Program-made: the position numbers and the translations under genes | Shown here: positions 3,974-21,349 of the stretch, in pieces | Position numbering within the stretch: position 1 is the stretch's first letter | Layout of the letters: each line of letters starts with the position of its first letter | Notes under the pieces: generated by a model | Told to the model about the DNA's origin: nothing | Databases searched by the model: none | The model's input: the letters and a program-made list of their open reading frames with translations, nothing else | Virus record (IMG/VR): IMGVR_UViG_3300045136_000435 | Span: 1 to 23,579 of that record | Strand: one strand, 5' to 3' | Length of the DNA: 23,579 nt | Source: a virus

Positions 3974-4150
3974 ATGGAAGAAAATCATTATACAAATGCC
4001 GTAAATAATTTTGAGAAACTAGTGAACCATTTGGAAAAAGAGTTGTCTAAAGACACTCTAGAAACTTTAAGATATAACATAATGTATTTAAAACTTTACC
4101 CGGATTATAATGGCCAATTACCGGAACAAAAAGATCTTGGATTTAGCTGA
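3974..4150 (+). CDS. Small hypothetical protein (58 aa)
   Basis: Starts with the second of two nearby ATGs; the first, at 3970, gives only a 12-codon frame. The helical, acidic product (EENHYTNAVNNFEKLVNHL) has no membrane segment. It overlaps the downstream DUF1364 gene by 41 bases in another frame, an unusually long overlap, and the ribosome binding site is weak. Both points lower confidence. No family recognised. Confidence 0.5.
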   Translation: MEENHYTNAVNNFEKLVNHLEKELSKDTLETLRYNIMYLKLYPDYNGQLPEQKDLGFS

Positions 4151-4421
4151 AGAGTGTGGTACATGTATGATCTGTGGGGCACAGGATGGGACCGTAGTAG
4201 CTGCCCATTCAAATCAACTTCGTGATGGTAAGGGAAAAGGTATAAAAGCACATGATTTTAGAGTGGCTTATTTATGTTCCACCTGTCATTACACTATAGA
4301 TCAAAGTCCATACCTTTCAAAAGAGGATCGGATAGAAACATGGGAAAGAGCACATAGAAATACGATTGAATGGTTATTTTTGAATAATCACATAACTATA
4401 AAGTCAACCACCCCCGACTGA
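4110..4421 (+). CDS. DUF1364 HNH-like nuclease, C-terminus altered by insertion
   Basis: A 103-aa protein matching the DUF1364 (phage nuclease-domain) pattern: a CMIC zinc knuckle at residues 19-22, an AHSN motif near 32-35, and CSTCH near 56-60. These Cys and His residues suggest a zinc-stabilised HNH-like fold, often encoded in phage replication or recombination regions. Residues after HITIK (STTPD and the stop) are read from the inserted IS605-type element, not the gene. Relatives as I recall them end close to that Lys, so the native gene probably ended with AAG TGA, and the insertion replaced only the stop codon. The protein is probably still functional with five extra residues. Confidence 0.8.
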   Translation: MANYRNKKILDLAEECGTCMICGAQDGTVVAAHSNQLRDGKGKGIKAHDFRVAYLCSTCHYTIDQSPYLSKEDRIETWERAHRNTIEWLFLNNHITIKSTTPD

Positions 4422-4647
4422 AGTCGGGGGCTTGAGGGAGTAGCGAATGCCATCGCGAAACGGAGAGACTAAACGGGAGACTAGGGTGGCCAAGGTCTCG
4501 CAAGAGGCCGTTGGAAGGCAACTGAGCCGTCTGCCCGTGGCAGGGCGGAACATGCAGCGGATGCTCCCCAAGTCTGCTGCTTCTGTGACGGCCAGTCCCG
4601 ATGGCGGAAATTGCCGACCGAAAGGTCGAGAAGAAAGGTAACTTTCT
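4388..4647 (+). ncRNA. Probable omega RNA of the IsrB element, 5' guide from flanking phage DNA
   Basis: About 240 GC-rich bases lie between the left end of the element and isrB, without a convincing ORF. They contain stable hairpins: the left-end hairpin (4411-4430), CTGCC/GGCAG at 4531-4543, an 8-bp stem pairing 4554-4561 with 4573-4580, and CGACC-GAAA-GGTCG at 4615-4628. IscB and IsrB proteins use an RNA encoded upstream whose 5' end is the guide and is read from the flanking target DNA. Here that would be about 16-20 bases ending at 4403. Exact ends are uncertain. Confidence 0.65.
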
Positions 4648-5676
4648 ATGCTTTACGTTCCGGTGGTATCTTGTACAGGCAAGCCTCTTATGCCGTGCCA
4701 CCCTGCCAGGACGCGGGAACTCGTGCGTAAGGGGAGAGCCGTTAGGCGGTTCAGCGGGGGGATGTTTTACATCCGGCTCCTGGACCGCCAAGACGGTGAT
4801 GTCCAGCCTATTGCGTGCGGTGTTGATCCGGGGTCGAAGAAGGAGGGCTTCTCGGTCAAGAGCGAATCCCATACCTATCTGAACGTGCAGGCTGATGCGG
4901 TGTGTTGGGTCAAGGATGCAGTTGAGACCCGCCGCCAAATGCGCCGTACTCGCCGATTCCGTAAGACGCCTTGCAGACAGCCGCGGTTAAATCGGGCAAG
5001 AGGTGGTATTCCGCCATCCACCAAGGCGCGATGGCAATGGAAGTTGCGCATTTGCCGATGGTTGAGCCGACTCTATCCCATTGCTTGTTTTGTGGTAGAG
5101 GACATTAAGGCGAGAACCACCGGCAAGAGACGGTGGGATGTTTCGTTTAGCCCGTTGCAGACTGGCAAGAAGTGGTTTTACGGCGAGCTTGAGAAACACG
5201 CCAAAGTAGAAACAAAAGAGGGATGGGAAACGAAAGAACTTCGTGATGCGCATGGACTGGCCAAGACAGGCCGAAAGATGTCTGAAGTATTCGAGGCGCA
5301 TTGCGTAGATGCTTGGGTTCTTGCGAACTGGTGGACCGGAGGCCACACCCAACCGGACAACACCAGGCTGATGTGTGTTTCTCCGCTTCGGTTTCACCGG
5401 AGACAATTGCACATGCTAAAGCCCGCAGAGGGTGGTGTTCGCCGCGCATATGGCGGCACCAGAAGCTTGTGGTATAAGCGTGGTTCAGTCGTCAAGCATC
5501 CTGAACGTGGCGTGTGTTATGTGGGCGGAACGATGGCGGGTCACATTAGCCTCCACTCTTTATTCGATGGTCGAAGGCTGTGCCAGAACGCCAGGCCGTT
5601 GGATTGCAAGTTTCTGACCTATGCTTCTTGGAGGACGCGGCTCCTCCCCTGTCTGAAGGCAGGGGTTTCCGCCGCG
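4404..5676 (+). mobile_element. Non-autonomous IS605/IS1341-like element carrying isrB
   Basis: A GC-rich island of about 1.27 kb with the terminal architecture of IS200/IS605 elements: a perfect CCCCCGAC/GTCGGGGG hairpin with TGAA loop 7 bases inside the left edge, and a CCCCTG/CAGGGG hairpin just inside the right edge. There are no long terminal inverted repeats and no target duplication. It has no TnpA transposase, so mobilisation would need a helper. Boundaries are inferred from where the nuclease gene and polymerase leader would rejoin cleanly, with one ambiguous G (4403/5676). It lies between the DUF1364 gene and the polymerase gene. Confidence 0.8.
4411..4430 (+). repeat. Left-end subterminal hairpin of the IS605-type element
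   Basis: A perfect 8-bp stem, CCCCCGAC with GTCGGGGG, closed by a TGAA loop. In this family such hairpins are the strand-specific recognition sites of the Y1 transposase. It also forms the start of the probable omega RNA and supplies the last residues and stop of the upstream nuclease ORF. Confidence 0.8.
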
Positions 5677-5679
5677 TGA
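4648..5679 (+). CDS. isrB: IsrB-like RNA-guided RuvC nuclease (HNH-less IscB relative)
   Basis: A 343-aa protein with IscB-superfamily architecture. The PLMP motif lies at residues 13-16 (GKPLMPCHPAR). RuvC-I has GVDPGS with Asp60. The Arg-rich RRXRR/bridge-helix segment is at 93-117. RuvC-II is VVEDIKA with Glu151, and RuvC-III is EAHCVDAW with His218 and Asp221. All RuvC catalytic positions appear intact. Only about 65 residues separate RuvC-II from RuvC-III and no HNH motif is present, so it matches IsrB (usually about 350 aa), whose characterised members nick DNA with an omega RNA guide. AGAAAGG (4632-4638) precedes the ATG. The C-terminus is encoded through the right-end hairpin, and the TGA stop appears to come from the flanking target. 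Confidence 0.88.
   Translation: MLYVPVVSCTGKPLMPCHPARTRELVRKGRAVRRFSGGMFYIRLLDRQDGDVQPIACGVDPGSKKEGFSVKSESHTYLNVQADAVCWVKDAVETRRQMRRTRRFRKTPCRQPRLNRARGGIPPSTKARWQWKLRICRWLSRLYPIACFVVEDIKARTTGKRRWDVSFSPLQTGKKWFYGELEKHAKVETKEGWETKELRDAHGLAKTGRKMSEVFEAHCVDAWVLANWWTGGHTQPDNTRLMCVSPLRFHRRQLHMLKPAEGGVRRAYGGTRSLWYKRGSVVKHPERGVCYVGGTMAGHISLHSLFDGRRLCQNARPLDCKFLTYASWRTRLLPCLKAGVSAA
5635..5677 (+). repeat. Right-end nested hairpin of the IS605-type element
   Basis: An inner hairpin, CCCCTG with CAGGGG (5646-5665, TGAA-type loop), is enclosed by a second 7-bp stem, ACGCGGC (5635-5641) with GCCGCGT (5671-5677). This is the typical right end of an IS200/IS605 element. It also encodes the last 14 or so residues of IsrB. 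Confidence 0.75.
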
Positions 5680-5685
5680 ATTTAT

Positions 5686-6825
5686 ATGATCTTAGTTCTC
5701 GATACAGAGAACACGATCCATAACAAAGGGAGCCCGTTCGATCAACGGAATTTCAACGTCTGTATTGCTTACAAGACTCCAGAAGAATCTGGGGTGCTAT
5801 TTAGCCAATACGAAAAGATTAAAGAGCTAATAGAGAAAGCATCCCTAATTGTATTCTTCAATGCGAAGTATGATATCCACTGGCTTCGCAAATTAAATCT
5901 CGACGTTCGTCATAAGCGGATTTGGTGTTGTCAAGTCTTCGAATTCATCCATAACAGGATGAGAGAAGCCTATCCAAGTCTGGATCAGACAACAGAGAAA
6001 TATGGGCTTGGAAAAAAGATAGACATAATTGAACAAGAATATTGGAGTAAGGGAATAAATACAGATCAAATCCCAAAAAATATTCTCTCAGATTATGCTT
6101 TAAAAGACGTTGAATTAACCTATGGAGTGTTCTTAGAACAACAAAAACTACAAAGACCGCATCAAAAAACATTATTCAATATTATGATGCACGATTTAAT
6201 TGTGCTATCAGATATGGAGTGGAATGGGTCTTTCTATAATCTAGAAAAATCAAAAGAAAAGGCCTTAGAAGTTGAAAGGGAAATTAACGAAATTCAAACT
6301 AAGCTTACTCTCTTTCATAATGTCCCTAATTTTAACTGGGGTTCTAACGATCACTTATCTTCTCTTCTTTATGGGGGAGAAATTAAAGAAATAATTCAGG
6401 TTCCTGATGGAACATATAAAACCGGCAAAAAGGCTGGACAGATAAAATTAAAAAGAGAAGAGAAGATCCACGTTTTGCCTAGACTATATAAACCTATAAA
6501 AGGATCTGAATTAAAAAAACCAGGTAAATGGTCAGTAGAAGAAACCTATCTTTTAAGATTAAAAGGAGACAGATCCCTTATTGATGGTATTCTAAGAATC
6601 AAGGAACTAAATAAATTAAAAGATACTTATTATTCTGGTTTTGTAGAGTTACATGAAACAATGCATTGGAAACCAGATATCTTACACACTACTTTTAATA
6701 TGGTGGTAGCACGCACTGGTAGACTATCGAGTACAAAACCAAATATTCAGAACCTTCCAGATCCTGCACAGGAGCTATTTGAAAGCAGATGGACAACTAC
6801 GAAGAAACCTATTTTACTTTGTTAG
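5686..6825 (+). CDS. DNA polymerase family A, N-terminal part (3'-5' exonuclease and thumb)
   Basis: The proofreading half of a T7/PolI-type replicative polymerase. Exonuclease motifs are visible: LDTE (Asp6, Glu8), FFNAKYD (Asp63) and YALKD (Tyr137, Asp141). The thumb and early palm follow, including TGRLSS at 344-349 and NIQNLP at 353-358. Homology should run through FESRW (365-369) and then stops: residues 370-379 are an unrelated tail and a TAG, where palm motif A is expected. Motifs A, B and C are on a separate downstream ORF in the same frame. The start lies 9 bases after the inserted IS605-type element and has no obvious ribosome binding site, so the insertion may have broken coupling to the upstream gene. 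Confidence 0.88.
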   Translation: MILVLDTENTIHNKGSPFDQRNFNVCIAYKTPEESGVLFSQYEKIKELIEKASLIVFFNAKYDIHWLRKLNLDVRHKRIWCCQVFEFIHNRMREAYPSLDQTTEKYGLGKKIDIIEQEYWSKGINTDQIPKNILSDYALKDVELTYGVFLEQQKLQRPHQKTLFNIMMHDLIVLSDMEWNGSFYNLEKSKEKALEVEREINEIQTKLTLFHNVPNFNWGSNDHLSSLLYGGEIKEIIQVPDGTYKTGKKAGQIKLKREEKIHVLPRLYKPIKGSELKKPGKWSVEETYLLRLKGDRSLIDGILRIKELNKLKDTYYSGFVELHETMHWKPDILHTTFNMVVARTGRLSSTKPNIQNLPDPAQELFESRWTTTKKPILLC

Positions 6826-6983
6826 ATATGGCCTCTATTTCTAAGGATGGTCTTATGCGAGAATTCCTTTTAGATTTAAAGGGATACTTTCCAGATGTAT
6901 TCGAGGATTTGAAACATCAATTAACAAAGATAGAAAATACAAAAGAACTAGCAGCTTTATTTAAAGATGTTAATTCAATGTGA
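6789..6983 (+). CDS. 64-aa ORF splitting the DNA polymerase gene
   Basis: The ATG is inside the last polymerase-like codons of the N-terminal half (37-base overlap) and the stop lies 17 bases into the C-terminal half. It is in another frame from both. The 64-aa product is helical and acidic (SKDGLMREFLLDLKGYFPD) with good phage-like codon use, so it looks coding rather than accidental. I recognise no homing endonuclease, intein or intron motif, and the insert (about 175 bases) is too small for a group I intron. It may be a cargo gene that split the polymerase, or a small subunit bridging the halves; both are inference. Confidence 0.55.
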   Translation: MDNYEETYFTLLDMASISKDGLMREFLLDLKGYFPDVFEDLKHQLTKIENTKELAALFKDVNSM

Positions 6984-7665
6984 TGCAAGTCAACTTGAGT
7001 GGAGAGTATTAGCATGGTTATCTGGAGATTCTATTGCATTACGGGAGATAAATGATGGGTTGGACTTTCATGCGAAAAATCAGGAAACCCTTGGTTTACC
7101 AACGAGGCTCATCGCTAAAATCTTTCTCTTCCGTACTATTTACCGCGGTTCTGGCTGGAGTTTCGCTAATGATCCTGATTTTATTCCTGTTTCTGACGAT
7201 CCCAAATTTTGGGATTCCATGAATGAAAAATTTTATCGTAAATATAAAGGAATAGATCTATGTCATAAGATTTGGGCACAGCAAGTAGCGGCACATAAGC
7301 CAATTGTTTCCCCCCTTGGAAGAGAATGGTTGATTCCTGTCAATGAAGATGGATCATTACCATGGACAGTTTTAACTAATTATCCAGTACAGGGGACTGG
7401 AAATGATCTTATGGCAGTTGCAAGAATTAGTCTGAGACGCAGGTTAGCTGGAAAACAGGCATTGTTAGTGTCCACGGTACACGACTCAATAGTGGTTGAC
7501 TGTCCGGATGATGAAGTAGAATTTGTAAAAAATACAATGTATGAAGTTTTTGACGATATTCCAAAGAATGTTGCAAAGCTGTGGTCGGTCAACCTGCCAT
7601 GTGCGTTTCCATGTGAAGTAAAAGTTGGATTAAACTTAAAGGATATGACTAAGGTATCTAAATGA
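6967..7665 (+). CDS. DNA polymerase family A, C-terminal part (palm and fingers)
   Basis: The 232-aa catalytic half. Motif A is LIQCDASQLEWR with Asp6. Motif B (O-helix) is at 47-62 (RLIAKIFLFRTIYRG, with Arg47, Lys51 and Tyr59). Motif C is STVHDS with His172 and Asp173. With the N-terminal part (379 aa) this adds up to a normal phage PolA. An in-frame TAG at 6949 blocks translation from upstream, and ATG 6967 is the first start, directly before motif A. Its start overlaps the 64-aa ORF, suggesting re-initiation. Activity would require the two chains to assemble or an RNA-level repair. The end overlaps the next gene as ATGA. Confidence 0.88.
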   Translation: MLIQCDASQLEWRVLAWLSGDSIALREINDGLDFHAKNQETLGLPTRLIAKIFLFRTIYRGSGWSFANDPDFIPVSDDPKFWDSMNEKFYRKYKGIDLCHKIWAQQVAAHKPIVSPLGREWLIPVNEDGSLPWTVLTNYPVQGTGNDLMAVARISLRRRLAGKQALLVSTVHDSIVVDCPDDEVEFVKNTMYEVFDDIPKNVAKLWSVNLPCAFPCEVKVGLNLKDMTKVSK

Positions 7666-12327: not shown

Positions 12328-12469
12328 CGCTCTTATTGCGTACTTACTAACTCGCCCTATGCAAGAGGTTGAACATGGAGTTAATGCCCTTCGTTATCTG
12401 GATGAGGTTCCAGCTAATTATCCAGAAGATTTTAACCAAGAAATCACACCGGTAAATGCTCCAGAATAG
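12293..12469 (+). CDS. Small hypothetical protein upstream of RNR (58 aa)
   Basis: ATG 12293 has the strong ribosome binding site AGAAGGAGA about 6 bases upstream. The product (MRFYKISEEVRNALIAYLL, then a QEVEHGVNALRYLDEV helix and a polar tail) resembles a small helical phage protein often found near replication genes. No function known. It overlaps the ribonucleotide reductase start by 14 bases, so it may drive RNR translation by coupling. Confidence 0.7.
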   Translation: MRFYKISEEVRNALIAYLLTRPMQEVEHGVNALRYLDEVPANYPEDFNQEITPVNAPE

Positions 12470-13260
12470 ATTTAAAACAAAATTTTCTGAAGATATTTTT
12501 AATTATAAGTACCGCAATGGTCCTAACGATACTTGGGATGCACTAGCAGAGCGTGTTGTAGAGGATGTTTGTGGTACTAGGTGGGGTACGACAGTTAAAT
12601 TAATGTCGGATGGAGATAGGGCACAGTTAGCCGAATACATCAAACAGATGAAGTTTCTTCCCGGAGGAAGGTACTTATATTATGCTGGTCGCCCTGCTAA
12701 ATACTTCAACAACTGTTTTATTGGTATCGCTAGGGAGGATTCTAGAGAGGAGTGGGCTCATTTAGTTTGGTGGGCCATGAGATGCCTCACTGTTGGAGGG
12801 GGGATTGGAATTGATTATTCAGTTTTTAGGGGGGCTGGAAGGCCATTAACTAGAACTGGTGGTTTGGCTTCTGGTCCCATACCCCTAATGATGGCAATTA
12901 ATGAAATTGGCAGGAATGTCATGCAGGGGGGTTCGAGACGATCTGCTATCTATGCATCTCTTCATTGGTCACATGAAGATATTTCTGCTTTCCTTAAGGC
13001 AAAAAATTGGGATGAATTATCCATTGGTCTTGGTGATGATGATGGTAATGTGTACACTGTTGCAGATGCTAAGGTAGCAGATTTTAATTTCAATGCTCCA
13101 CTGGATATGACAAATATTTCGGTTAACTATGACGATAGTGCTGGAAATTTAATTGAGAATCCAGTTTTTTTGGAGAATTGTTTTCAGGCTATGCGAACTG
13201 GTGAACCTGGATTTTCTTTTAATTTTGGAGATAAAGCCAGAGAGACCGGCAGGAATGCGT
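12456..13260 (+). CDS. nrdJ: Ribonucleotide reductase large/catalytic chain, exon 1 (probably class II)
   Basis: The N-terminal 268 residues of a ribonucleotide reductase, which converts ribonucleotides to dNTPs. Visible are LPGGRYLYYAG, FNNCFIG (first redox cysteine), LTVGGGIGIDYS, GGSRRSAIYASL and MTNISVNYDDS. The exon ends at T13260, the first base of the TGT codon for the catalytic cysteine in RNACTEV (equivalent of E. coli NrdA Asn437-Cys439-Glu441). Without splicing, the frame ends at 13281-13283 after an unrelated tail (LTTSALH). Motif style, the absence of a small-subunit gene here, and a total of about 558 aa favour a B12-dependent class II enzyme, but class is not proven. Confidence 0.88.
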
Positions 13261-14057
13261 TAACTACTAGCGCCCTGCACTAGAAATAGTGCTTGAATAA
13301 CTAACCTAAAAACAGGGGAAATCCAGAACGGATAATCCTGTGCCAATTCAGTATTGAAAGGTGCAACGACTATGAGTATTAATGAAAAGCAACTTAGCAA
13401 GCTACTCTACTATTTTAGTAGCTTTGATGGTGGTGTATATCCATCAGGAAAAGAATTCCGCTATGTGATGAATATGCGTGAGGAAAACAAAGACTACATT
13501 AATTGGGTAAGAGAGACACTTGAATCTTTTACTGGAACTAATGTTTATAAAGTTCCTCAACGTGGTAATCGCAAACCACTATTATGTTTAATGTCAAAGG
13601 TACATCCTAAATTTGCTGCAATTCGAGAGCGTTTGTACACTCCAGAAGGCAAAAAAATTCTTGATCCACATCAGCTAACATTGCTTGATGCTGAAGCATT
13701 AGCTATCATTTTTATGGCAGATGGTGGGACAAATCTAGATAAAGGAAAGTACCCCGAGATTAAACTACACACGAAAGGCTACAGCTATTTTGACAATCTT
13801 GCACTTAGCAAGGCAATCTATGAAAAAACTGGTATTAGAACAACAGTGAACAAACATAACCAGTATTTTTTCTTACGTGTCAAAACAGCCGACTTACAAC
13901 TATTTATTGATGTTGTAAAGCCTTACATATTGCCAAGCTTTTCTTACAAACTCGAACGGTTAGCTCCAGCAATGGGTGGTGATATAGTCTGTGCTTCACA
14001 GGAATGTGAAGAGGTTGAAGGAAACTATCAACCATGCTAAATGCATTAACAAAACAG
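13261..14057 (+). ncRNA. Group I self-splicing intron 1 in RNR
   Basis: The 797-base insert rejoins RNR exactly as GCG-T|GT-ACA if removed. It follows group I rules: the exon ends in T and the intron ends in G. Core elements are visible. P1: exon GCGT with GCGC at 13270-13273, extended by GCAGG/CCTGC. P2: GCACTA-GAAA-TAGTGC at 13277-13292. A Q-like AATCCTGTGCCAA occurs near 13334-13346. R is GTGCAACGACTA (13361-13372), S is GATATAGTCTG (13981-13991), and P9-type hairpins lie at 13994-14011 and 14013-14033. It carries a LAGLIDADG ORF between R and S. Confidence 0.88.
13372..14040 (+). CDS. LAGLIDADG homing endonuclease in intron 1
   Basis: A 222-aa intron-encoded endonuclease. ATG 13372 is preferred over the upstream TTG frame at 13354. 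The first LAGLIDADG-type helix is LLYYFSSFDGG; the clearer second motif is ALAIIFMADGG (residues about 109-119), followed by a beta-rich segment and a final NLALSKAIYEKTGI repeat, as in small phage and organelle DNA endonucleases. It would cut intronless RNR alleles and spread the intron. The start lies directly after R and the C-terminus is encoded through the S and P9 elements, so protein and ribozyme share sequence at both ends. No good ribosome binding site is seen. Confidence 0.82.
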   Translation: MSINEKQLSKLLYYFSSFDGGVYPSGKEFRYVMNMREENKDYINWVRETLESFTGTNVYKVPQRGNRKPLLCLMSKVHPKFAAIRERLYTPEGKKILDPHQLTLLDAEALAIIFMADGGTNLDKGKYPEIKLHTKGYSYFDNLALSKAIYEKTGIRTTVNKHNQYFFLRVKTADLQLFIDVVKPYILPSFSYKLERLAPAMGGDIVCASQECEEVEGNYQPC

Positions 14058-14452
14058 GTACAGAAGTTACATCTTCAGACCATGAGGATGTGTGTAATCT
14101 TGGTTCTATAAATATAGGAAACATTTCTTCATTATCTGAATTTAAGGATATTGTAAATTTAGCCTCAAAATTCCTATTATGTGGTACATTAAGAGCGGAT
14201 TTACCAACCGAAGGAACTTATAAAGTAAGAGAAAAAAACAGGCGGCTAGGTCTTGGATTAATGGGGATACATGAATGGCTTTTAAAACGAAACTATAAAT
14301 ATGAGGTTACTCCAGAACTTCATAAATGGCTTTCTGTTTATAAAGAAGAATCGAAACGCGCGGCCGATGAGCATGCTGACCGACTTTTTGTAAATCACCC
14401 GGTTGCATATCGGGCTATTGCTCCTACTGGAAGTATTGGCATTCTAGCAAGT
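14058..14452 (+). CDS. nrdJ: Ribonucleotide reductase, exon 2
   Basis: The exon opens with GT ACA GAA GTT, completing the catalytic Cys codon and giving CTEVTSSDHEDVCNLGSINIG. This contains the active-site Cys and Glu and the second redox cysteine (VCNLGS). The middle has the LRRLGLGLMGIHEW-like helix (KNRRLGLGLMGIHEW). The end is the phosphate-binding motif APTGSIGILAS, cut at T14452 before TTTGIEP. The exon is 395 bases and begins in phase 1; read alone from 13991 it carries an intron-derived N-terminus and a false tail (LIGLLFTVM). Confidence 0.88.
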
Positions 14453-14524
14453 TTGATTGGCTTGCTTTTCACAGTAATGTGATCAAAATAAATTGGGTGA
14501 ATTCAGGGAACATCTAAATTTCTC

Positions 14525-14553
14525 TTGCCTTATTCCAATAAGTATGGTATAAT
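14525..14553 (+). promoter_or_regulatory. Sigma70-like promoter inside intron 2
   Basis: TTGCCT (14525-14530), a 17-base spacer, then TGG-TATAAT (14545-14553): a perfect -10 box with an extended TGn and optimal spacing. Transcription would begin near 14560, about 24 bases before the HNH endonuclease ATG, so the endonuclease can be expressed independently of RNR transcription. Confidence 0.65.
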
Positions 14554-14583
14554 ATACGTATTGAACCATTGAAAGGGGTAAGG

Positions 14584-15249
14584 ATGAATAAATATAATCA
14601 ATTAACTGTATTAGAAGAAGTGAACCAGAATAAACGTTGGATGTATAAAGTTCAATGTGATTGTGGTAAAGTGGAAATCAAAAGAAAAGATTGGGTCATA
14701 CAAGGAAGAACAACTTCTTGTAAATCTTGTGCTAGTAAACGCACAGCAAAACAATATCCACCACCGGTTAATCGCAAAGGATGTAACGGCTTATCTGGAA
14801 CACACTTCTTAGCTATAAAACAAGGTGCAATAAGACGTAATATTCAGTTTGATTTGACTCCAGAATTTCTTTGGAATCTATATCTCAAACAAGAGGGTAG
14901 ATGTGCATTAACTAATGTGCCTATAAATCTAGATTGTTTAATTAGAAATAACAATGTAGATTGGAAATATATTACAGCATCCTTGGATAGAATAGATAAT
15001 ACTAAACCATATATTGAATCTAATGTATGGTGGGTACACAAAACAGTTAATAGATTAAAAAATAATTTTTCATTAGAAGAACTTCTTTATTGGAGTAGAC
15101 TTCTTCTTGAGAAACATGACAATCCTGATCCAAGCGTAGTGAAAGAGGTAGAAGTAACTACGAAGGAGCAACGACTAGGCATTGAGGACTCTACCAATAA
15201 TATGCCCACGAGCGCCCAACATCCTATCAAGGATGAAGATATAGTCTGA
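14584..15249 (+). CDS. HNH homing endonuclease in intron 2
   Basis: A 221-aa intron-encoded nuclease. ATG 14584 is chosen because GAAAGGGGTAAGG lies just upstream; the frame from 14569 is an unnecessary extension. The N-terminal third has a zinc ribbon (CDCGK ... CKSC), a basic middle follows, and the nuclease core reads GRCALTNVPI ... ASLDRIDNTKPYIESNVWW, the signature of phage HNH/HNN-type homing nucleases. The last 40 or so residues are read through the ribozyme R and S elements and may be incidental. It has its own promoter. It would mobilise intron 2 into intronless RNR genes. Confidence 0.85.
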   Translation: MNKYNQLTVLEEVNQNKRWMYKVQCDCGKVEIKRKDWVIQGRTTSCKSCASKRTAKQYPPPVNRKGCNGLSGTHFLAIKQGAIRRNIQFDLTPEFLWNLYLKQEGRCALTNVPINLDCLIRNNNVDWKYITASLDRIDNTKPYIESNVWWVHKTVNRLKNNFSLEELLYWSRLLLEKHDNPDPSVVKEVEVTTKEQRLGIEDSTNNMPTSAQHPIKDEDIV

Positions 15250-15303
15250 GCTATATGGAAACATATAGAAGTGTGTATAAAGAGACACACGATAACACAA
15301 CTG

Positions 15304-15780
15304 ACAACAACTGGTATTGAACCTATCTATGCAGTGGCTTACAAACGAAACTATTTAGTTGCTGGTAATAGGTGGAAATACCAATTTGTAATTGATTCGA
15401 CTGCAGATTTCCTAATTAAAGAGTATGGAATTGATCCAGATAAAATTGAAACTTCTATTGATTTAGCAGATGACTATGAAAGAAGAATTAAATTCCAAGC
15501 AGATGTTCAAGATTACGTTGATATGTCAATCTCCAGTACCATCAATCTTCCTGCCTGGGGTACCGGAAAAAACACACCGGAGAACGTTGCAAGATTTGCA
15601 AGAATCCTTGCCAAGTACGCTCCGCGTCTACGAGGATTTACATGTTATCCAGATGGAAGTAGAGGAGGACAACCAATCACTAGAGTAGACTATAAAAAAG
15701 CCCTTAATCATAAGGGCGTAGAGTATCTTGAAACAGATGTGTGTGAATTAACCGGCAAGGGAGGTACTTGCGGGGCATAA
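15304..15780 (+). CDS. nrdJ: Ribonucleotide reductase, exon 3
   Basis: The exon begins TTTGIEPIYAVAYKRNY, completing the phosphate-binding loop, and continues with STINLPAWGTG and the barrel end GFTCYPDGSRGGQP. The C-terminal tail has two cysteines (VCELTGKGGTCGA), which could be the swinging thiols that re-reduce the active site. The spliced protein is 558 aa from 1677 coding bases in a single consistent frame. A frame from 15271 exists only by reading the intron end. A terminator follows 3 bases after the stop. Confidence 0.88.
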   Translation, partial: TTTGIEPIYAVAYKRNYLVAGNRWKYQFVIDSTADFLIKEYGIDPDKIETSIDLADDYERRIKFQADVQDYVDMSISSTINLPAWGTGKNTPENVARFARILAKYAPRLRGFTCYPDGSRGGQPITRVDYKKALNHKGVEYLETDVCELTGKGGTCGA

Positions 15781-16271: not shown

Positions 16272-16740
16272 ATTCGCGCTCAGTTTCAAGCTCAGAATCA
16301 ATCCATCTGCGTAATCTAGTTACGCGGTTCATCCACCCCCTTTCAAAGACTTTTAATTTGGGGTTTCTATTTATTAATTCTTTATACTTTTCAATCCTTA
16401 ATTGAAGAAATGTAACATAGTTATTGTTACACCCTTTCAGAAAAATCTCTGCCCTCCTCCTTCCCATGTTTATGGATGTGTCCAACATACATGCGGCCAA
16501 AGCAAGACCCAGTTTTTCCCAATCTGGGCTCCAATATTTCTCATAATAAATCTTCAACGCTAACTCTGGTTTTAGATCTTTAACGTTTATTTGAGGTATG
16601 TTATTTTCCTGACAATACGCATCCAGAGTCTTCTGAGTGACCCCCATATTGGTGGCTCCACCTGGGTCATTTGGATGGTTTACATAACCACCTTCTTCTT
16701 GTAAAACGAATTGGATTATTCTAGCGAACATAGTCTTCAT
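16258..16740 (-). CDS. Endolysin, GH108-type N-acetylmuramidase
   Basis: A 160-aa peptidoglycan hydrolase. The N-terminal catalytic motif EGGYVNHPNDPGGATN carries the GH108 glutamate (Glu16) and the conserved DPGG-T turn, followed by GVTQKTLDAY. Later IYYEKYW and MLDTSINMG match the family core, and the C-terminal half fits the PG_binding_3 region. No signal peptide, so export would need a holin. The start overlaps the polyvalent gene by 20 bases. Met4 is an alternative start. Confidence 0.88.
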   Translation of the reverse strand: MKTMFARIIQFVLQEEGGYVNHPNDPGGATNMGVTQKTLDAYCQENNIPQINVKDLKPELALKIYYEKYWSPDWEKLGLALAACMLDTSINMGRRRAEIFLKGCNNNYVTFLQLRIEKYKELINRNPKLKVFERGWMNRVTRLRRWIDSELETEREYERK

Positions 16741-19700
16741 ACCTCTTTGCTCCGGCTCCAGTCTTTGCTTTCATCTGCATTTGCTCTAGTTTTGTTGTCA
16801 TTCTACGGACAAAAGCCTCTCCAAACATTTTTTCCAAATCTGGTACTGTGCCATTTAATTCTACATATCTGCTAAATAAGTCTCCGACATTTTCCGGAGA
16901 ACCAAAAATAACTGCTTCTTTTAATTTCTCTGTTGTGCTACGCAGTCGTTCTTTTCTTTGTGCCTCAGATTTAGCATTTCTAAATTTTAATTCTTTTGCT
17001 TCTGCTTCTTTTAATCCAGTAAATCCAAATTTTCTAGCTGTTATATCCGAAGGCGAGCGTCTGTAAACCCCCTGAAGAGGGTCGCTAACTTGTGTAGCTA
17101 CTCCTGAATTTTTATCAAAAAATACATCTGAATTAGCTTCATAAAGCCCTTTTAATCCTGCAGGAAGTGTTTGATGAATTAACTGTGCCTGCTTTACTTT
17201 ACTTTCTGGATCAACTGCAAGAGCCCACATTTTCTCAAGTTGAGTCGTTAATTCACCAATAAAAGGTAAAAGCCCTTCTAAGGTGGGGTCAACTACTGTA
17301 CCGGAATCATATCTGGTGTGGATATTTAAACCCGATGCTGTAGATGCACCCCCATAAACAAGCCATGATTTAGATGGATCATCGAATGCCGCTTTTATCA
17401 GAGATTCTTTGATTGAAAAATCTTTCACTTTCATCCAAAGGTTATCTGGTAATAGTGTCTTTAGGTATTCCCAAGATTTATCTAATGTATTAATACCAAA
17501 GAAGCCTACTGCGCCACCCATCATCATTTGAATTGCGACCAAACTTAATAATGGGCCATATTGACCAGTTTGTTTAGCTTCTTTTGCAAATAAATACAAT
17601 TGATTTAATTGGTTAATTTTGAATTGATTTAGTGTAGATAAAGCAGATCCGACTACACCCAATTTATTGAAAATTGGAGCTCGTTCTTGTACTCGATAAT
17701 CCGCCATAGATAGATTTGTAAGTTCTTCTGCTCTCTGGAACATCTCTACTTCTCTACCTTTAAATGCTCCAGATTGGTCCAAATGGTGTACAAAGTTCAT
17801 GTATGCAACGGCGCGAGCAATCCGCTCTGAATACACCATATTGAACGTAACTACTTGTTCTAGAGTTTGTAGTTTTTCTGGACGACCGAGATCTGAAACA
17901 TCTGAAATGGTAGTAATATCAATGATACCATTATCAATACCATAAGTAGCAGCTTTTCTTCCAATCTCAGTCATTCCATCTTTGGGAAGTTGCATTCCCT
18001 CATGCTCAAGAATAAGGCCAAGTGAGTCTTGCATTCCTGCAACAAAGGTTCTTACTGGATCATGCTTAATCCCGTGATTAGACAACCTTACGTGCCAAGG
18101 AATTGTATACATAGGTTGTATCAATGACACAACAGTAAAGGGTAGGTTTAATCCTAAAGTTTTCCAATAAAACAACATTTTTGAATATCCAGTAGCTTTT
18201 GCTAAAGTTAATCTAGATACTCCAAATGTTTTAGCAATAGTATTCTCTATTTCTGTTGCAACTTTTAGTTCGCCAAAACCAAGCTTATTCTTTGCAACTT
18301 CTTTCCCCAACGTGATTGCATTTGATGCTTTTTCCATTAATTCAGGATCAGAGAAGATTTGTTTTGCTTTCGCAGTGGCTTTTTGCATCTCTGCCCAAGT
18401 TAAAGCATTTTCCAGATATTTTATTTGTTGCCTAAACATATCTTTAATGTCTGCTTTTTCCCATGGACGATCACCAGTGAACCCTCTGACACCAGATTTT
18501 GGTTCAAAATGTTTGGTTTGACCAAGGGTTTTAATGCTTTCTGCAGACACAAAATCTTCATAAATAGATTTTAATGTTTCTACTCTAGGATCATTTGGGT
18601 CTAACAGTTTAAGTAATTCTTGATATCCGGCTTCTAATAAACCACCACGGTCTCTGCCACTACCACCACGATATTCGACCTTAGACTTAGATAAATCTAA
18701 ATCAGGATGATTCTCAGCTAAATATTGTAGCGCAGCTTCCGCTCGTTTTTTAGAAGGTTCTGCTATATACCATATTAGCTTTCCTTTTTTATCATAAACG
18801 GGGGTTCTCCAATCTCCTCCCCATCTGGAAGAAATATAAGCTTCTCTATAAGTTAGAGGTTTTCTTCCTAATGCGATCAAGGTTTCATTTTGTACTTTAT
18901 GGGCTAGATCAAAAGCATTTCGTAGTCCTTCATAAGCACGGACAACATTATCTGGAACTCCAGCAGCTAGCAATTGTTCCTTAGAGAATTTTTGATCTTG
19001 TTTTAATTCCTTCATAAAAATACCATGTAGGATCTCTGCATGATCTTTATTATGAAGAATATCGTTTAATAGCTCTCTTGTTGGAGAGATGTTTTCCCTA
19101 ATTAAATAATTTGCTCTTTTTGTAGCATTATTAAACCATTGCACTGTTGCATATACCACAGGATGATTTTTAATTTCTGCAAGCATATGTGTGCCACCGA
19201 TAAATGCACTTCCAGGTGCAGTATCAGACACTTTTAAAGCTTCTTGTTTTACTTTTTCAACAGAAATATCTTCTGGAATTAGTGCATCTTTGAGATCTTT
19301 ACTAATAGGTAGTTTCTCAAATGCAGATGTTTTATGTTCTTCTTTAGCTAATTCACCAGAAAATTTTCCACGTATTTTTTCAGCTAATTTTCCTACACCT
19401 AATAGATCAAGATTAAGCGCCCCTCTTTGTTTGGCTGGAACCACTATCCTTTTTGGTGGATCATAAATAGATCTAATATTATCTAAATTCCAAGTTACAA
19501 AGGAAATTGGGTCTTGTACAATAGGCTTTTCAAATCTTTTTTTACCAAATAAAGTTTCGCCTGCATTTCTATAAAAAAATCCATCTACCCCCACTTCTTT
19601 TAATAGCTGAGAAAAAAGACGATTTCTTTCTGTGGATACATCAGAAGTTCTTACATGATCTAAATCAAAAATACTGCGTTTATACCAATCATATCTAGAT

Positions 19701-21349
19701 TGTGTTAATGGAGGTTTTCCATTTTCTGCAGCAAGTTTATTTAATAAGTCAAAAAGAATAAAACGTTCACCTTTATATTTAAAGGTAAGTGGACCATCTA
19801 ATGGCCTTGACATTAAACTAGACGGGTGCCAATGTCCTGCATCAGACTCTAAAAATGGATAATTACCGCGTTTAATTACAAGGGGGTGTATATTTTTAGG
19901 AAATTCAGAGTCAGGTAAAAGTCTTTTTCTATATGTGTTTGGTTTGTTTGCTAGAACAGGTCCAGTTGCTCCTGTCCTAATTAGATGTGCTGGAACCGTA
20001 AATCCAGCGTGTACTCCTTCTGGAGTATCTACAAATTTATTAAAAACTGAATTAGTCCCATGTAATAAAACTAACGGAGTTCCGTCGCTATTAGTCATCC
20101 ACTTATCAGAAGGGAATCTTTCTTTTAGCCATTTCTGGTCCGTAAGTCTGGATAATGCCCTGGTTAATCTTTTAAATCCTTCTTTGAATATTTGTGGATC
20201 AATGGCCCCACGTTCCCGTTTTGGAACAAATGGTTTTTTAGCAAAATTGTAGAACTCTTTAGATGCTTCATCTACAACCGGAGGAATTTGAGTTTCAGTT
20301 TTTTGTGGGTTTAATTCTCCCCCTTTTCTAATTCCTTCTGGATATCTAGGAGCAGGTATGTCCCCTCTAGATACAGATTCCCACAACTTTTGTAAGCCAA
20401 TTGCATCTTGTGGGGAATAAATACCAAGTTGCCTCATCCCGGACATGAATTCAGATTCTAGCCGAGCAAGGCCAGCTTCATCTCCTGCTTGACGAAGTCG
20501 ATCTGCTTCTAATCTGAAATTATCTATTGCAGATTTGATTTCCGGTTGTTGAAGAACTTCTTGACGCAATGGAAAATCAATTGTGGGAACACTTTCGTCC
20601 ATACCCTGAACTACTTTTCCAGTAGTTGGATCTAGGTGCCGTACACCACCATCTGGTGTTGGATATTGATCTTCCGGTAATAGTTCAAATGGAAGTCTAG
20701 ATTCTCCACGAAGCTCCGGAAATTCTGCACCAAGGGCATTTTTACCACCAAATTGTTGTCCACGAATTGTTTGTGAATCTATAGAAAGTTCTTCTGGAGT
20801 AATGGGGGTTTCTACTGGTTTATCTAGGTTTTGTAAGACTTGATTGGGCTCTTTTGGCCTCTCAGTTAAATCAATTTTAGTCTCTTTTGATAGTGCCTTC
20901 TTACCTGCATGCAAAGGCATAAAATTAAGTAATGTCTCTGCTATTACACCAGCAAATAAACGGCCCTCTGAACCTGCGATAGATTCACCTACTTCTGCTG
21001 CCTTTTCAATTGGGTATTTAAAAGCTTGGCCTAATGCCTCAGAATATTGCTTTCCTTCCTGAGTTTTAGGTTGTGCTCCTAAAAATTTATCTAAATTTTC
21101 TTGTACATACTTTTGTTGTGCAGCCGCTGCATCTATTCCTTGTCCAGTTAATAATGCACCAAGCCCTGTTAGGCCACCCCCAACATAACCTGGCAAACTA
21201 AGAAGAACACCACCAGCAGCTTCAAGTGCCCCGATAGTGCCTTTAAGTTGAGCTTCTTTTTCTCTATTGATAACCTGTTCAGCAGAAAGATCTTCCTCAA
21301 AAGGAAGAATGCTTTCTTCAAACGGCAATTCTTCTTCAAATGGTAACAT
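16721..21349 (-). CDS. Large polyvalent/internal virion protein with ADP-ribosyltransferase-like domain
   Basis: A 1542-aa protein, probably carried in the virion and injected with DNA. It begins with three tandem LPFEE motifs (residues 2-21), then Gly/Ala-rich hydrophobic helices (about 35-75). Residues about 420-630 look like an ART-PolyVal domain: LVLLHGTNSVFNKF, GVHAGFT, then GVDGFFYRNAGE and SFVTWNLDNIRSIYDPP. The rest is largely helical with hydrophobic stretches near 1090-1110 and 1280-1300, typical of large polyvalent proteins and the T7 gp16-like ejection class. The C-terminus is basic and charged. Function of the ART module (host modification after entry) is inference. The first base overlaps the upstream gene's stop. 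Confidence 0.75.
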   Translation of the reverse strand: MLPFEEELPFEESILPFEEDLSAEQVINREKEAQLKGTIGALEAAGGVLLSLPGYVGGGLTGLGALLTGQGIDAAAAQQKYVQENLDKFLGAQPKTQEGKQYSEALGQAFKYPIEKAAEVGESIAGSEGRLFAGVIAETLLNFMPLHAGKKALSKETKIDLTERPKEPNQVLQNLDKPVETPITPEELSIDSQTIRGQQFGGKNALGAEFPELRGESRLPFELLPEDQYPTPDGGVRHLDPTTGKVVQGMDESVPTIDFPLRQEVLQQPEIKSAIDNFRLEADRLRQAGDEAGLARLESEFMSGMRQLGIYSPQDAIGLQKLWESVSRGDIPAPRYPEGIRKGGELNPQKTETQIPPVVDEASKEFYNFAKKPFVPKRERGAIDPQIFKEGFKRLTRALSRLTDQKWLKERFPSDKWMTNSDGTPLVLLHGTNSVFNKFVDTPEGVHAGFTVPAHLIRTGATGPVLANKPNTYRKRLLPDSEFPKNIHPLVIKRGNYPFLESDAGHWHPSSLMSRPLDGPLTFKYKGERFILFDLLNKLAAENGKPPLTQSRYDWYKRSIFDLDHVRTSDVSTERNRLFSQLLKEVGVDGFFYRNAGETLFGKKRFEKPIVQDPISFVTWNLDNIRSIYDPPKRIVVPAKQRGALNLDLLGVGKLAEKIRGKFSGELAKEEHKTSAFEKLPISKDLKDALIPEDISVEKVKQEALKVSDTAPGSAFIGGTHMLAEIKNHPVVYATVQWFNNATKRANYLIRENISPTRELLNDILHNKDHAEILHGIFMKELKQDQKFSKEQLLAAGVPDNVVRAYEGLRNAFDLAHKVQNETLIALGRKPLTYREAYISSRWGGDWRTPVYDKKGKLIWYIAEPSKKRAEAALQYLAENHPDLDLSKSKVEYRGGSGRDRGGLLEAGYQELLKLLDPNDPRVETLKSIYEDFVSAESIKTLGQTKHFEPKSGVRGFTGDRPWEKADIKDMFRQQIKYLENALTWAEMQKATAKAKQIFSDPELMEKASNAITLGKEVAKNKLGFGELKVATEIENTIAKTFGVSRLTLAKATGYSKMLFYWKTLGLNLPFTVVSLIQPMYTIPWHVRLSNHGIKHDPVRTFVAGMQDSLGLILEHEGMQLPKDGMTEIGRKAATYGIDNGIIDITTISDVSDLGRPEKLQTLEQVVTFNMVYSERIARAVAYMNFVHHLDQSGAFKGREVEMFQRAEELTNLSMADYRVQERAPIFNKLGVVGSALSTLNQFKINQLNQLYLFAKEAKQTGQYGPLLSLVAIQMMMGGAVGFFGINTLDKSWEYLKTLLPDNLWMKVKDFSIKESLIKAAFDDPSKSWLVYGGASTASGLNIHTRYDSGTVVDPTLEGLLPFIGELTTQLEKMWALAVDPESKVKQAQLIHQTLPAGLKGLYEANSDVFFDKNSGVATQVSDPLQGVYRRSPSDITARKFGFTGLKEAEAKELKFRNAKSEAQRKERLRSTTEKLKEAVIFGSPENVGDLFSRYVELNGTVPDLEKMFGEAFVRRMTTKLEQMQMKAKTGAGAKRYEDYVR

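What the first reader, a model, noticed from the sequence alone, without database searches (positions are those of the whole stretch)
4404..5679. IsrB-omega RNA system inserted in a phage replication operon
The 343-aa protein has PLMP, an Arg-rich bridge and all RuvC catalytic positions (Asp60, Glu151, His218/Asp221) but no HNH, matching IsrB, the compact nickase relative of IscB and Cas9. It sits in an IS605-type element with both end hairpins and no transposase, between a nuclease and the DNA polymerase gene of a phage. I am not aware of a described phage-borne IsrB in this position.
Basis: partly seen in the sequence, partly recalled or inferred. Interest (0 to 1): 0.88.

Follow-up and report, generated by a model that had tools for sequence, protein, structure and literature searches.

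The report
Phage-borne IsrB RNA-guided nickase element
A small mobile element carrying an RNA-guided DNA nickase (IsrB, a relative of Cas9's ancestor) sits in a phage exactly before the start codon of its DNA polymerase gene; it belongs to a known family, but its relatives show that these elements land between a gene's ribosome-binding site and its start codon, using the start codon itself as landing signal.

Summary
The 343-aa protein is an IsrB: DtIsrB is its best sequence and fold match over nearly the whole length, the RuvC residues are intact, and there is no HNH. Upstream lies an omega RNA whose fold is kept by compensatory changes (31 of 53 pairs). The element has IS605-type end hairpins and no transposase on this contig. 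Corrected limits are 4403-5685. It fills the junction of an HNH-nuclease gene and a split family-A DNA polymerase gene; joining the flanks gives a stop/start overlap (AAATGA). The TAM is the polymerase start codon, ATGA. The boundary rule was confirmed on true empty sites in seven cyanobacterial relatives of another copy. Phage-borne IsrBs are not new: K2IsrB came from a viral metagenome, Microcystis phage Ma-LMM01 carries a likely one, and I found about 60 viral contigs. What may be new are three family-wide patterns: insertion between Shine-Dalgarno and start codon, a natural match between the TAM-reading residue (Q or R/K) and ATGA or ATGG, and phage IsrB frames that often end at the downstream start codon. 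New member of a known kind; homing-like spread is the likely role, activity untested.

The parts
4403..5685 (+). whole IsrB/omega RNA element (1283 bp), IS605-type, no transposase inside
   Evidence: left end GTCAA shared with relatives; right end directly before ATGA, as in true empty sites of a related copy
4383..4402 (+). probable guide (16-20 nt of left flank, AATAATCACATAACTATAAA); next bases are GTCA, not a TAM, so the occupied copy is spared
   Evidence: position known for IscB/IsrB omega RNAs; only full match in the window is this one
4403..4647 (+). omega RNA scaffold
   Evidence: HEARO RF02033 end to end at 4403-4641, 24.7 bits, below cut-off; 31 of 53 pairs with double compensatory changes; MFE z = -3.2
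4411..4430 (+). left-end hairpin CCCCCGAC-TGAA-GTCGGGGG
   Evidence: sequence; helix 2 of the consensus, 6 of 8 pairs with double changes
4648..5679 (+). isrB gene, 343 aa; stop codon 6 nt before the polymerase ATG
   Evidence: purifying selection
5646..5665 (+). right-end hairpin CCCCTGTC-TGAA-GGCAGGGG, with outer stem 5636-5641/5671-5676
   Evidence: sequence; conserved in relatives
5686..5689 (+). ATGA: TAM and also the start codon of the polymerase gene
   Evidence: Q313 goes with ATGA; relatives' polymerase genes mostly start ATGA
4110..4421 (+). HNH nuclease gene upstream; its last codons (from 4403) are element sequence; joined flanks give ...ITIK-stop
   Evidence: phrog_131; element-free homologues end in AAATGA stop/start overlap (L202; L046)
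5686..6825 (+). family-A DNA polymerase, first ORF (exonuclease and start of polymerase domain)
   Evidence: Pfam PF01612, PF00476
6967..7665 (+). family-A DNA polymerase, second ORF
   Evidence: Pfam PF00476

Best explanation
It is an intact, non-autonomous IS200/IS605-type element that carries an IsrB RNA-guided nickase and its omega RNA. Shown: the element lies exactly between the end of an HNH gene and the ATGA start codon of a phage DNA polymerase gene; the protein and RNA are under selection to keep the IsrB fold; the TAM position is ATG(A/G). Inferred from DtIsrB biochemistry: the omega RNA carries about 16-20 nt of the left flank as guide and leads IsrB to the uninterrupted HNH/polymerase junction, which is guide followed by ATGA, in element-free phage genomes. 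[quoted passage not shown] Repair by recombination with an occupied copy during co-infection then installs or restores the element. The occupied copy is spared because GTCA, not a TAM, follows the guide. First insertion needs a Y1 transposase supplied in trans. Insertion at a stop/start overlap breaks no protein. In this copy the isrB stop codon lies 6 nt before the polymerase ATG, so ribosomes finishing IsrB may restart there and keep the polymerase translated (hypothesis).
For: DtIsrB is the best PDB match by sequence (E 2.5e-40, residues 3-294; profile 3.3e-56) and by fold (Foldseek 2.1e-25; Z 25.6 over 298 residues). Catalytic residues are invariant in 22 viral homologues. pN is 0.17-0.26 against saturated pS. 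The omega RNA has 120 cells with double changes against 34 in shuffles and 11-20 in slid structures. HEARO hits in sister loci begin exactly at the predicted left ends (L061, L063, L067, L057). Empty sites of the L148 copy in seven relatives confirm ends and ATGA with no duplication; L137's flanks also match an uninterrupted site. Joined flanks put the upstream stop in ATGA in the window and six other loci. Residue 313 (= DtIsrB Q326): of 86 loci with Q, 83 are flanked by ATGA; of 12 with R/K, 8 are flanked by ATGG; p = 4.6e-7.
Against: No activity, transcript or movement was tested. No element-free version of this exact junction was found; polymerase relatives mostly lack both the HNH gene and the element. 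Rfam HEARO is below its cut-off. IsrB makes nicks, and whether nicks drive homing is unproven. On the tree the residue/TAM match rests on only 7 independent pairs (5 agree, 0 oppose, 2 uninformative in most pairings; sign test p 0.0625).
Confidence: 0.85

Rival explanations
1. Inert relic: an old insertion that lost its transposase and is only carried along.
For: No TnpA on the contig; the record is a fragment, so trans supply is not seen.
Against: Intact ORF, catalytic residues, TAM residue and folded RNA, and strong purifying selection across relatives. The selection estimate comes from divergent homologues, so recent loss of activity in this one copy is not excluded.
Confidence: 0.12
2. Kept by the phage for its own benefit: IsrB nicks rival phage or host DNA, or acts as a guided regulator, rather than as a selfish homing device.
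For: Many phages carry IsrB, often beside core genes; mobile-element nucleases have been recruited for cellular functions before (review PMC8987985, listed, not read here).
Against: The guide is the element's own flank, so the natural target is the same locus without the element; intact transposon-type ends.
Confidence: 0.15
3. IscB or TnpB rather than IsrB.
For: NCBIfam guided_IscB matches the N-terminal half.
Against: Below the curated cut-off (101 against 175 bits), no HNH, DtIsrB first in all searches, RNA lies 5' of the gene unlike TnpB.
Confidence: 0.01
4. The element controls the polymerase gene by RNA structure or coupled translation, and mobility is secondary.
For: Elements lie between upstream translation signals and the ATG; viral isrB frames end at the downstream ATG in 15 of 38 loci against 2 of 54 cellular ones.
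Against: Different insertion sites and downstream genes among relatives; within viral loci the excess over the other two frames is modest (15/38 against 14/76, p = 0.02), and loci are not independent.
Confidence: 0.1

Closest known systems
DtIsrB of Desulfovirgula thermocuniculi (8DMB; PMC9581776)
   Same: PLMP, bridge, RuvC without HNH, TAM-interacting domain; R323/Q326 align with R310/Q313; 5' omega RNA; NTGA-type TAM
   Different: about 28-30% identity; cellular thermophile; omega RNA here is diverged from the Rfam consensus
K2IsrB from a viral metagenome contig (PMC9581776)
   Same: virus-derived IsrB with NTG TAM and nicking shown in vitro
   Different: sequence not compared here; genomic site not described in the text read
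Microcystis phage Ma-LMM01 gp171 (NC_008562)
   Same: phage-borne RRXRR protein without detected HNH, HEARO-like RNA directly upstream (27.4 bits, below cut-off), near a replication gene
   Different: 31% identity; 382 aa; different phage group and site
HEARO / IscB elements (RF02033; PMC9755519)
   Same: same RNA architecture and IS605-type setting; many viral copies
   Different: IscB has an HNH domain and cuts both strands
Phage homing endonucleases (HNH, LAGLIDADG, group I intron borne)
   Same: selfish spread into element-free siblings, inserted at harmless places in core genes
   Different: here the target is read by an RNA guide and only one strand is expected to be cut

Membership tests
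IsrB | PLMP domain at the N-terminus | tested here: met
   KPLMP at 12-16; M15 and P16 invariant in 22 sequences
IsrB | Arg-rich bridge and RuvC with D, E, H, D catalytic residues | tested here: met
   RRQMRRTRRFRKTPCR 95-110; D60, E151, H218, D221 invariant; RuvC fold
IsrB | no HNH domain | tested here: met
   Pfam finds only RRXRR; 343 aa; 66 residues between E151 and H218 form helix-strand-helix
IsrB | C-terminal TAM-interacting domain with R323/Q326 equivalents | tested here: met
   R310/Q313 by alignment; full-length fold match
IsrB | long structured omega RNA just 5' of the gene | tested here: met
   4403-4647, covariation; Rfam HEARO sub-threshold
IsrB | TAM of NTG/NTGA/NTGG type at the right flank | tested here: met
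   ATGA at 5686; family-wide TAM/residue match
IsrB | RNA-guided nicking of the non-target strand | not testable with these tools
   needs biochemistry
IscB (guided_IscB, NF040563) | curated full-length model score and HNH domain | tested here: not met
   101 bits against cut-off 175, residues 6-154 only
IS200/IS605 element | subterminal hairpins and insertion at a short motif without target duplication | tested here: met
   hairpins; exact empty sites of a related copy
IS200/IS605 element | Y1 transposase (TnpA) in the element | tested here: not met
   no PF01797 match on the 23.6-kb record: at most a non-autonomous IS605-type element

The most novel reading that the evidence does not exclude
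Phage IsrB elements use the start codon as TAM and so settle between Shine-Dalgarno and ATG of core phage genes. In phages, but rarely in cells, the isrB frame has been extended through the right-end hairpin to stop at the downstream start codon, replacing the lost translation signal by translational coupling and making the insertion nearly neutral.
Probability: 0.35. Interest if true: 0.6.

Novelty: new member of a known kind. Interest (0 to 1): 0.45.

Why it matters
It adds a well-bounded phage copy with its own guide, TAM and predicted target, so a homing or retention role for IsrB becomes directly testable in a phage cross. The family-wide patterns explain how a mobile nickase can sit among essential replication genes: the start codon is the landing signal. 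They also give natural evidence for which residue reads the fourth TAM base, matching the published Q326R experiment.

Tried and rejected
GTGA at 5676-5679 as TAM instead of ATGA at 5686: rejected because a close relative (L054) has GTAG there and ATGG further on, the spacing to ATG(A/G) is nearly constant, and the HNH frame then lacks its natural end. A rule-based right-end finder that takes the first NTGR after the hairpin placed the window and L057 at GTGA; its counts (10 of 16 viral loci with an ORF of at least 100 codons against 21.5% of control ATGR; 7 of 13 gene-start-like against 7.6%) are therefore conservative. Direct empty site for this very junction: polymerase scans gave relatives without the HNH gene next to the polymerase, and the HNH scan gave homologues beside other genes. 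Translational coupling as a general rule: not supported in cellular copies (2 of 54) and only modest within viral ones. Key papers Altae-Tran 2021 and Weinberg 2009 are not held, so I could not check whether start-codon insertion of HEARO elements was noted there; from memory, the 2009 paper reported ATGA/GTGA next to HEARO. Rfam hits to other families in 4300-5800 judged chance.

Full report
What is there. ORF 4648-5679 (+) encodes 343 aa. Pfam gives RRXRR (1.2e-33) for residues 4-154 only; NCBIfam guided_IscB matches the same part below its cut-off. The best PDB sequence is DtIsrB (2.5e-40, residues 3-294); IscB chains match only the N-terminal part. An alignment of 22 viral homologues (54-78% identity) keeps D60, E151, H218 and D221 invariant. 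AlphaFold2 (pLDDT 79) matches DtIsrB over the whole length (Foldseek 2.1e-25; Z 25.6, rmsd 4.8, 298 residues), ahead of IscB and Cas9. There is no room for an HNH domain. The protein is under purifying selection (pN 0.17-0.26, pS saturated).

The RNA. Rfam HEARO aligns end to end at 4403-4641 but at only 24.7 bits (cut-off 83). An alignment of 13 related upstream regions gives a consensus fold with 53 pairs, 31 with changes on both sides. Ninety-six percent of cells pair against 78% in shuffles and 33-42% in slid structures; the covariation score is 0.54 against 0.20. HEARO hits in sister loci start exactly at my predicted left ends.

The ends. Homologues share the left end GTCAA (or GTCAT) and a right-end hairpin followed after a short tail by ATG(A/G). 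The rule was tested on another copy: the flanks of L148, joined without its 1302-bp element, match uninterrupted sites in seven relatives, with the junction exactly before a conserved ATGA start codon and no duplication. L137, between two overlapping genes of another genome, likewise has an uninterrupted counterpart. Applied to the window the rule gives 4403-5685.

The site. Joining the window's flanks gives ...CAC ATA ACT ATA AA|A TGA TCT..., so the HNH gene would end in ITIK-stop with TGA inside the polymerase start ATGA. Element-free HNH homologues end the same way: L046 VVK-stop in AAATGA and L202 LVK-stop in AAATGA, in a phage of the same polymerase group. In polymerase relatives the polymerase gene mostly starts with ATGA. 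No element-free version of the window's own junction was found.

Family-wide patterns. (1) Shine-Dalgarno cores lie 4-17 nt before the left end in 18 of 47 loci against 11.9% of control windows (p = 3e-6), peaking at 8 nt, the normal spacing to a start codon. So the elements sit between ribosome-binding site and ATG. The window itself has no such core; its junction was a stop/start overlap. (2) The ATG after the right end heads a real gene more often than control ATGs. (3) Residue 313 aligns with DtIsrB Q326. Of 86 loci with Q there, 83 are flanked by ATGA and 3 by ATGG; of 12 with R or K, 8 are flanked by ATGG and 4 by ATGA (Fisher 4.6e-7; loci with another fourth base or another residue were left out, and the right end was set without regard to the fourth base). 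The published Q326R mutant accepts ATGG (PMC9581776). On the tree the residue changed 8 times; independent pairs agree 5, oppose 0, suggestive but small. (4) isrB stops within -4 to +9 nt of the flanking ATG in 15 of 38 viral loci against 2 of 54 cellular ones (p = 1.7e-5), though only 15/38 against 14/76 for the other frames (p = 0.02). In the window the distance is 6 nt. These loci are related, and the test was chosen after seeing the data.

Mechanism. Shown: identity, limits, intact parts, TAM. Inferred from DtIsrB work: the guide is the left flank 4383-4402, the target is the uninterrupted junction in element-free genomes, IsrB nicks it, and recombination copies the element. The occupied copy is protected because GTCA follows the guide. 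No transposase is present, so initial movement needs help in trans.

Novelty. IsrB in viruses is known: K2IsrB (PMC9581776), over 16% of HEARO contigs viral (PMC9755519), and Ma-LMM01 gp171 with a HEARO-like RNA. I found 26 and 61 viral loci in two overlapping scans. The window is therefore a new member of a known kind. The start-codon placement and the natural residue/TAM match are the most interesting products; I could not read the two founding papers to see whether the first was noted.

Noticed in passing
window 5686-6825 and 6967-7665: The family-A DNA polymerase is split into two ORFs inside the polymerase domain, with a small ORF 6789-6983 between; the same split recurs in some 40 related viral contigs.
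   Followed up: partly
window 12456-15780: The ribonucleotide reductase gene is in three pieces, separated by a LAGLIDADG ORF (13354-14040) and by an HNH-like ORF with a group I intron (RF00028 at 15003-15268): several kinds of selfish element in one 23.6-kb contig.
   Followed up: partly
window 16721-21349 (-): A 1542-aa ORF with no Pfam or PHROG match.
   Followed up: no
L066 2427-2648: A second, strong HEARO RNA (130 bits) on the same contig fragment, downstream of the IsrB element.
   Followed up: no
L054 and L055: Sister IsrBs that differ at residue 313 (R against Q) and in the flanking TAM (ATGG against ATGA): a natural pair for testing TAM specificity.
   Followed up: no
L089, L106, L070: In these loci the joined flanks keep one long frame through the ATG, so the element seems to sit inside a gene rather than before it.
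   Followed up: no
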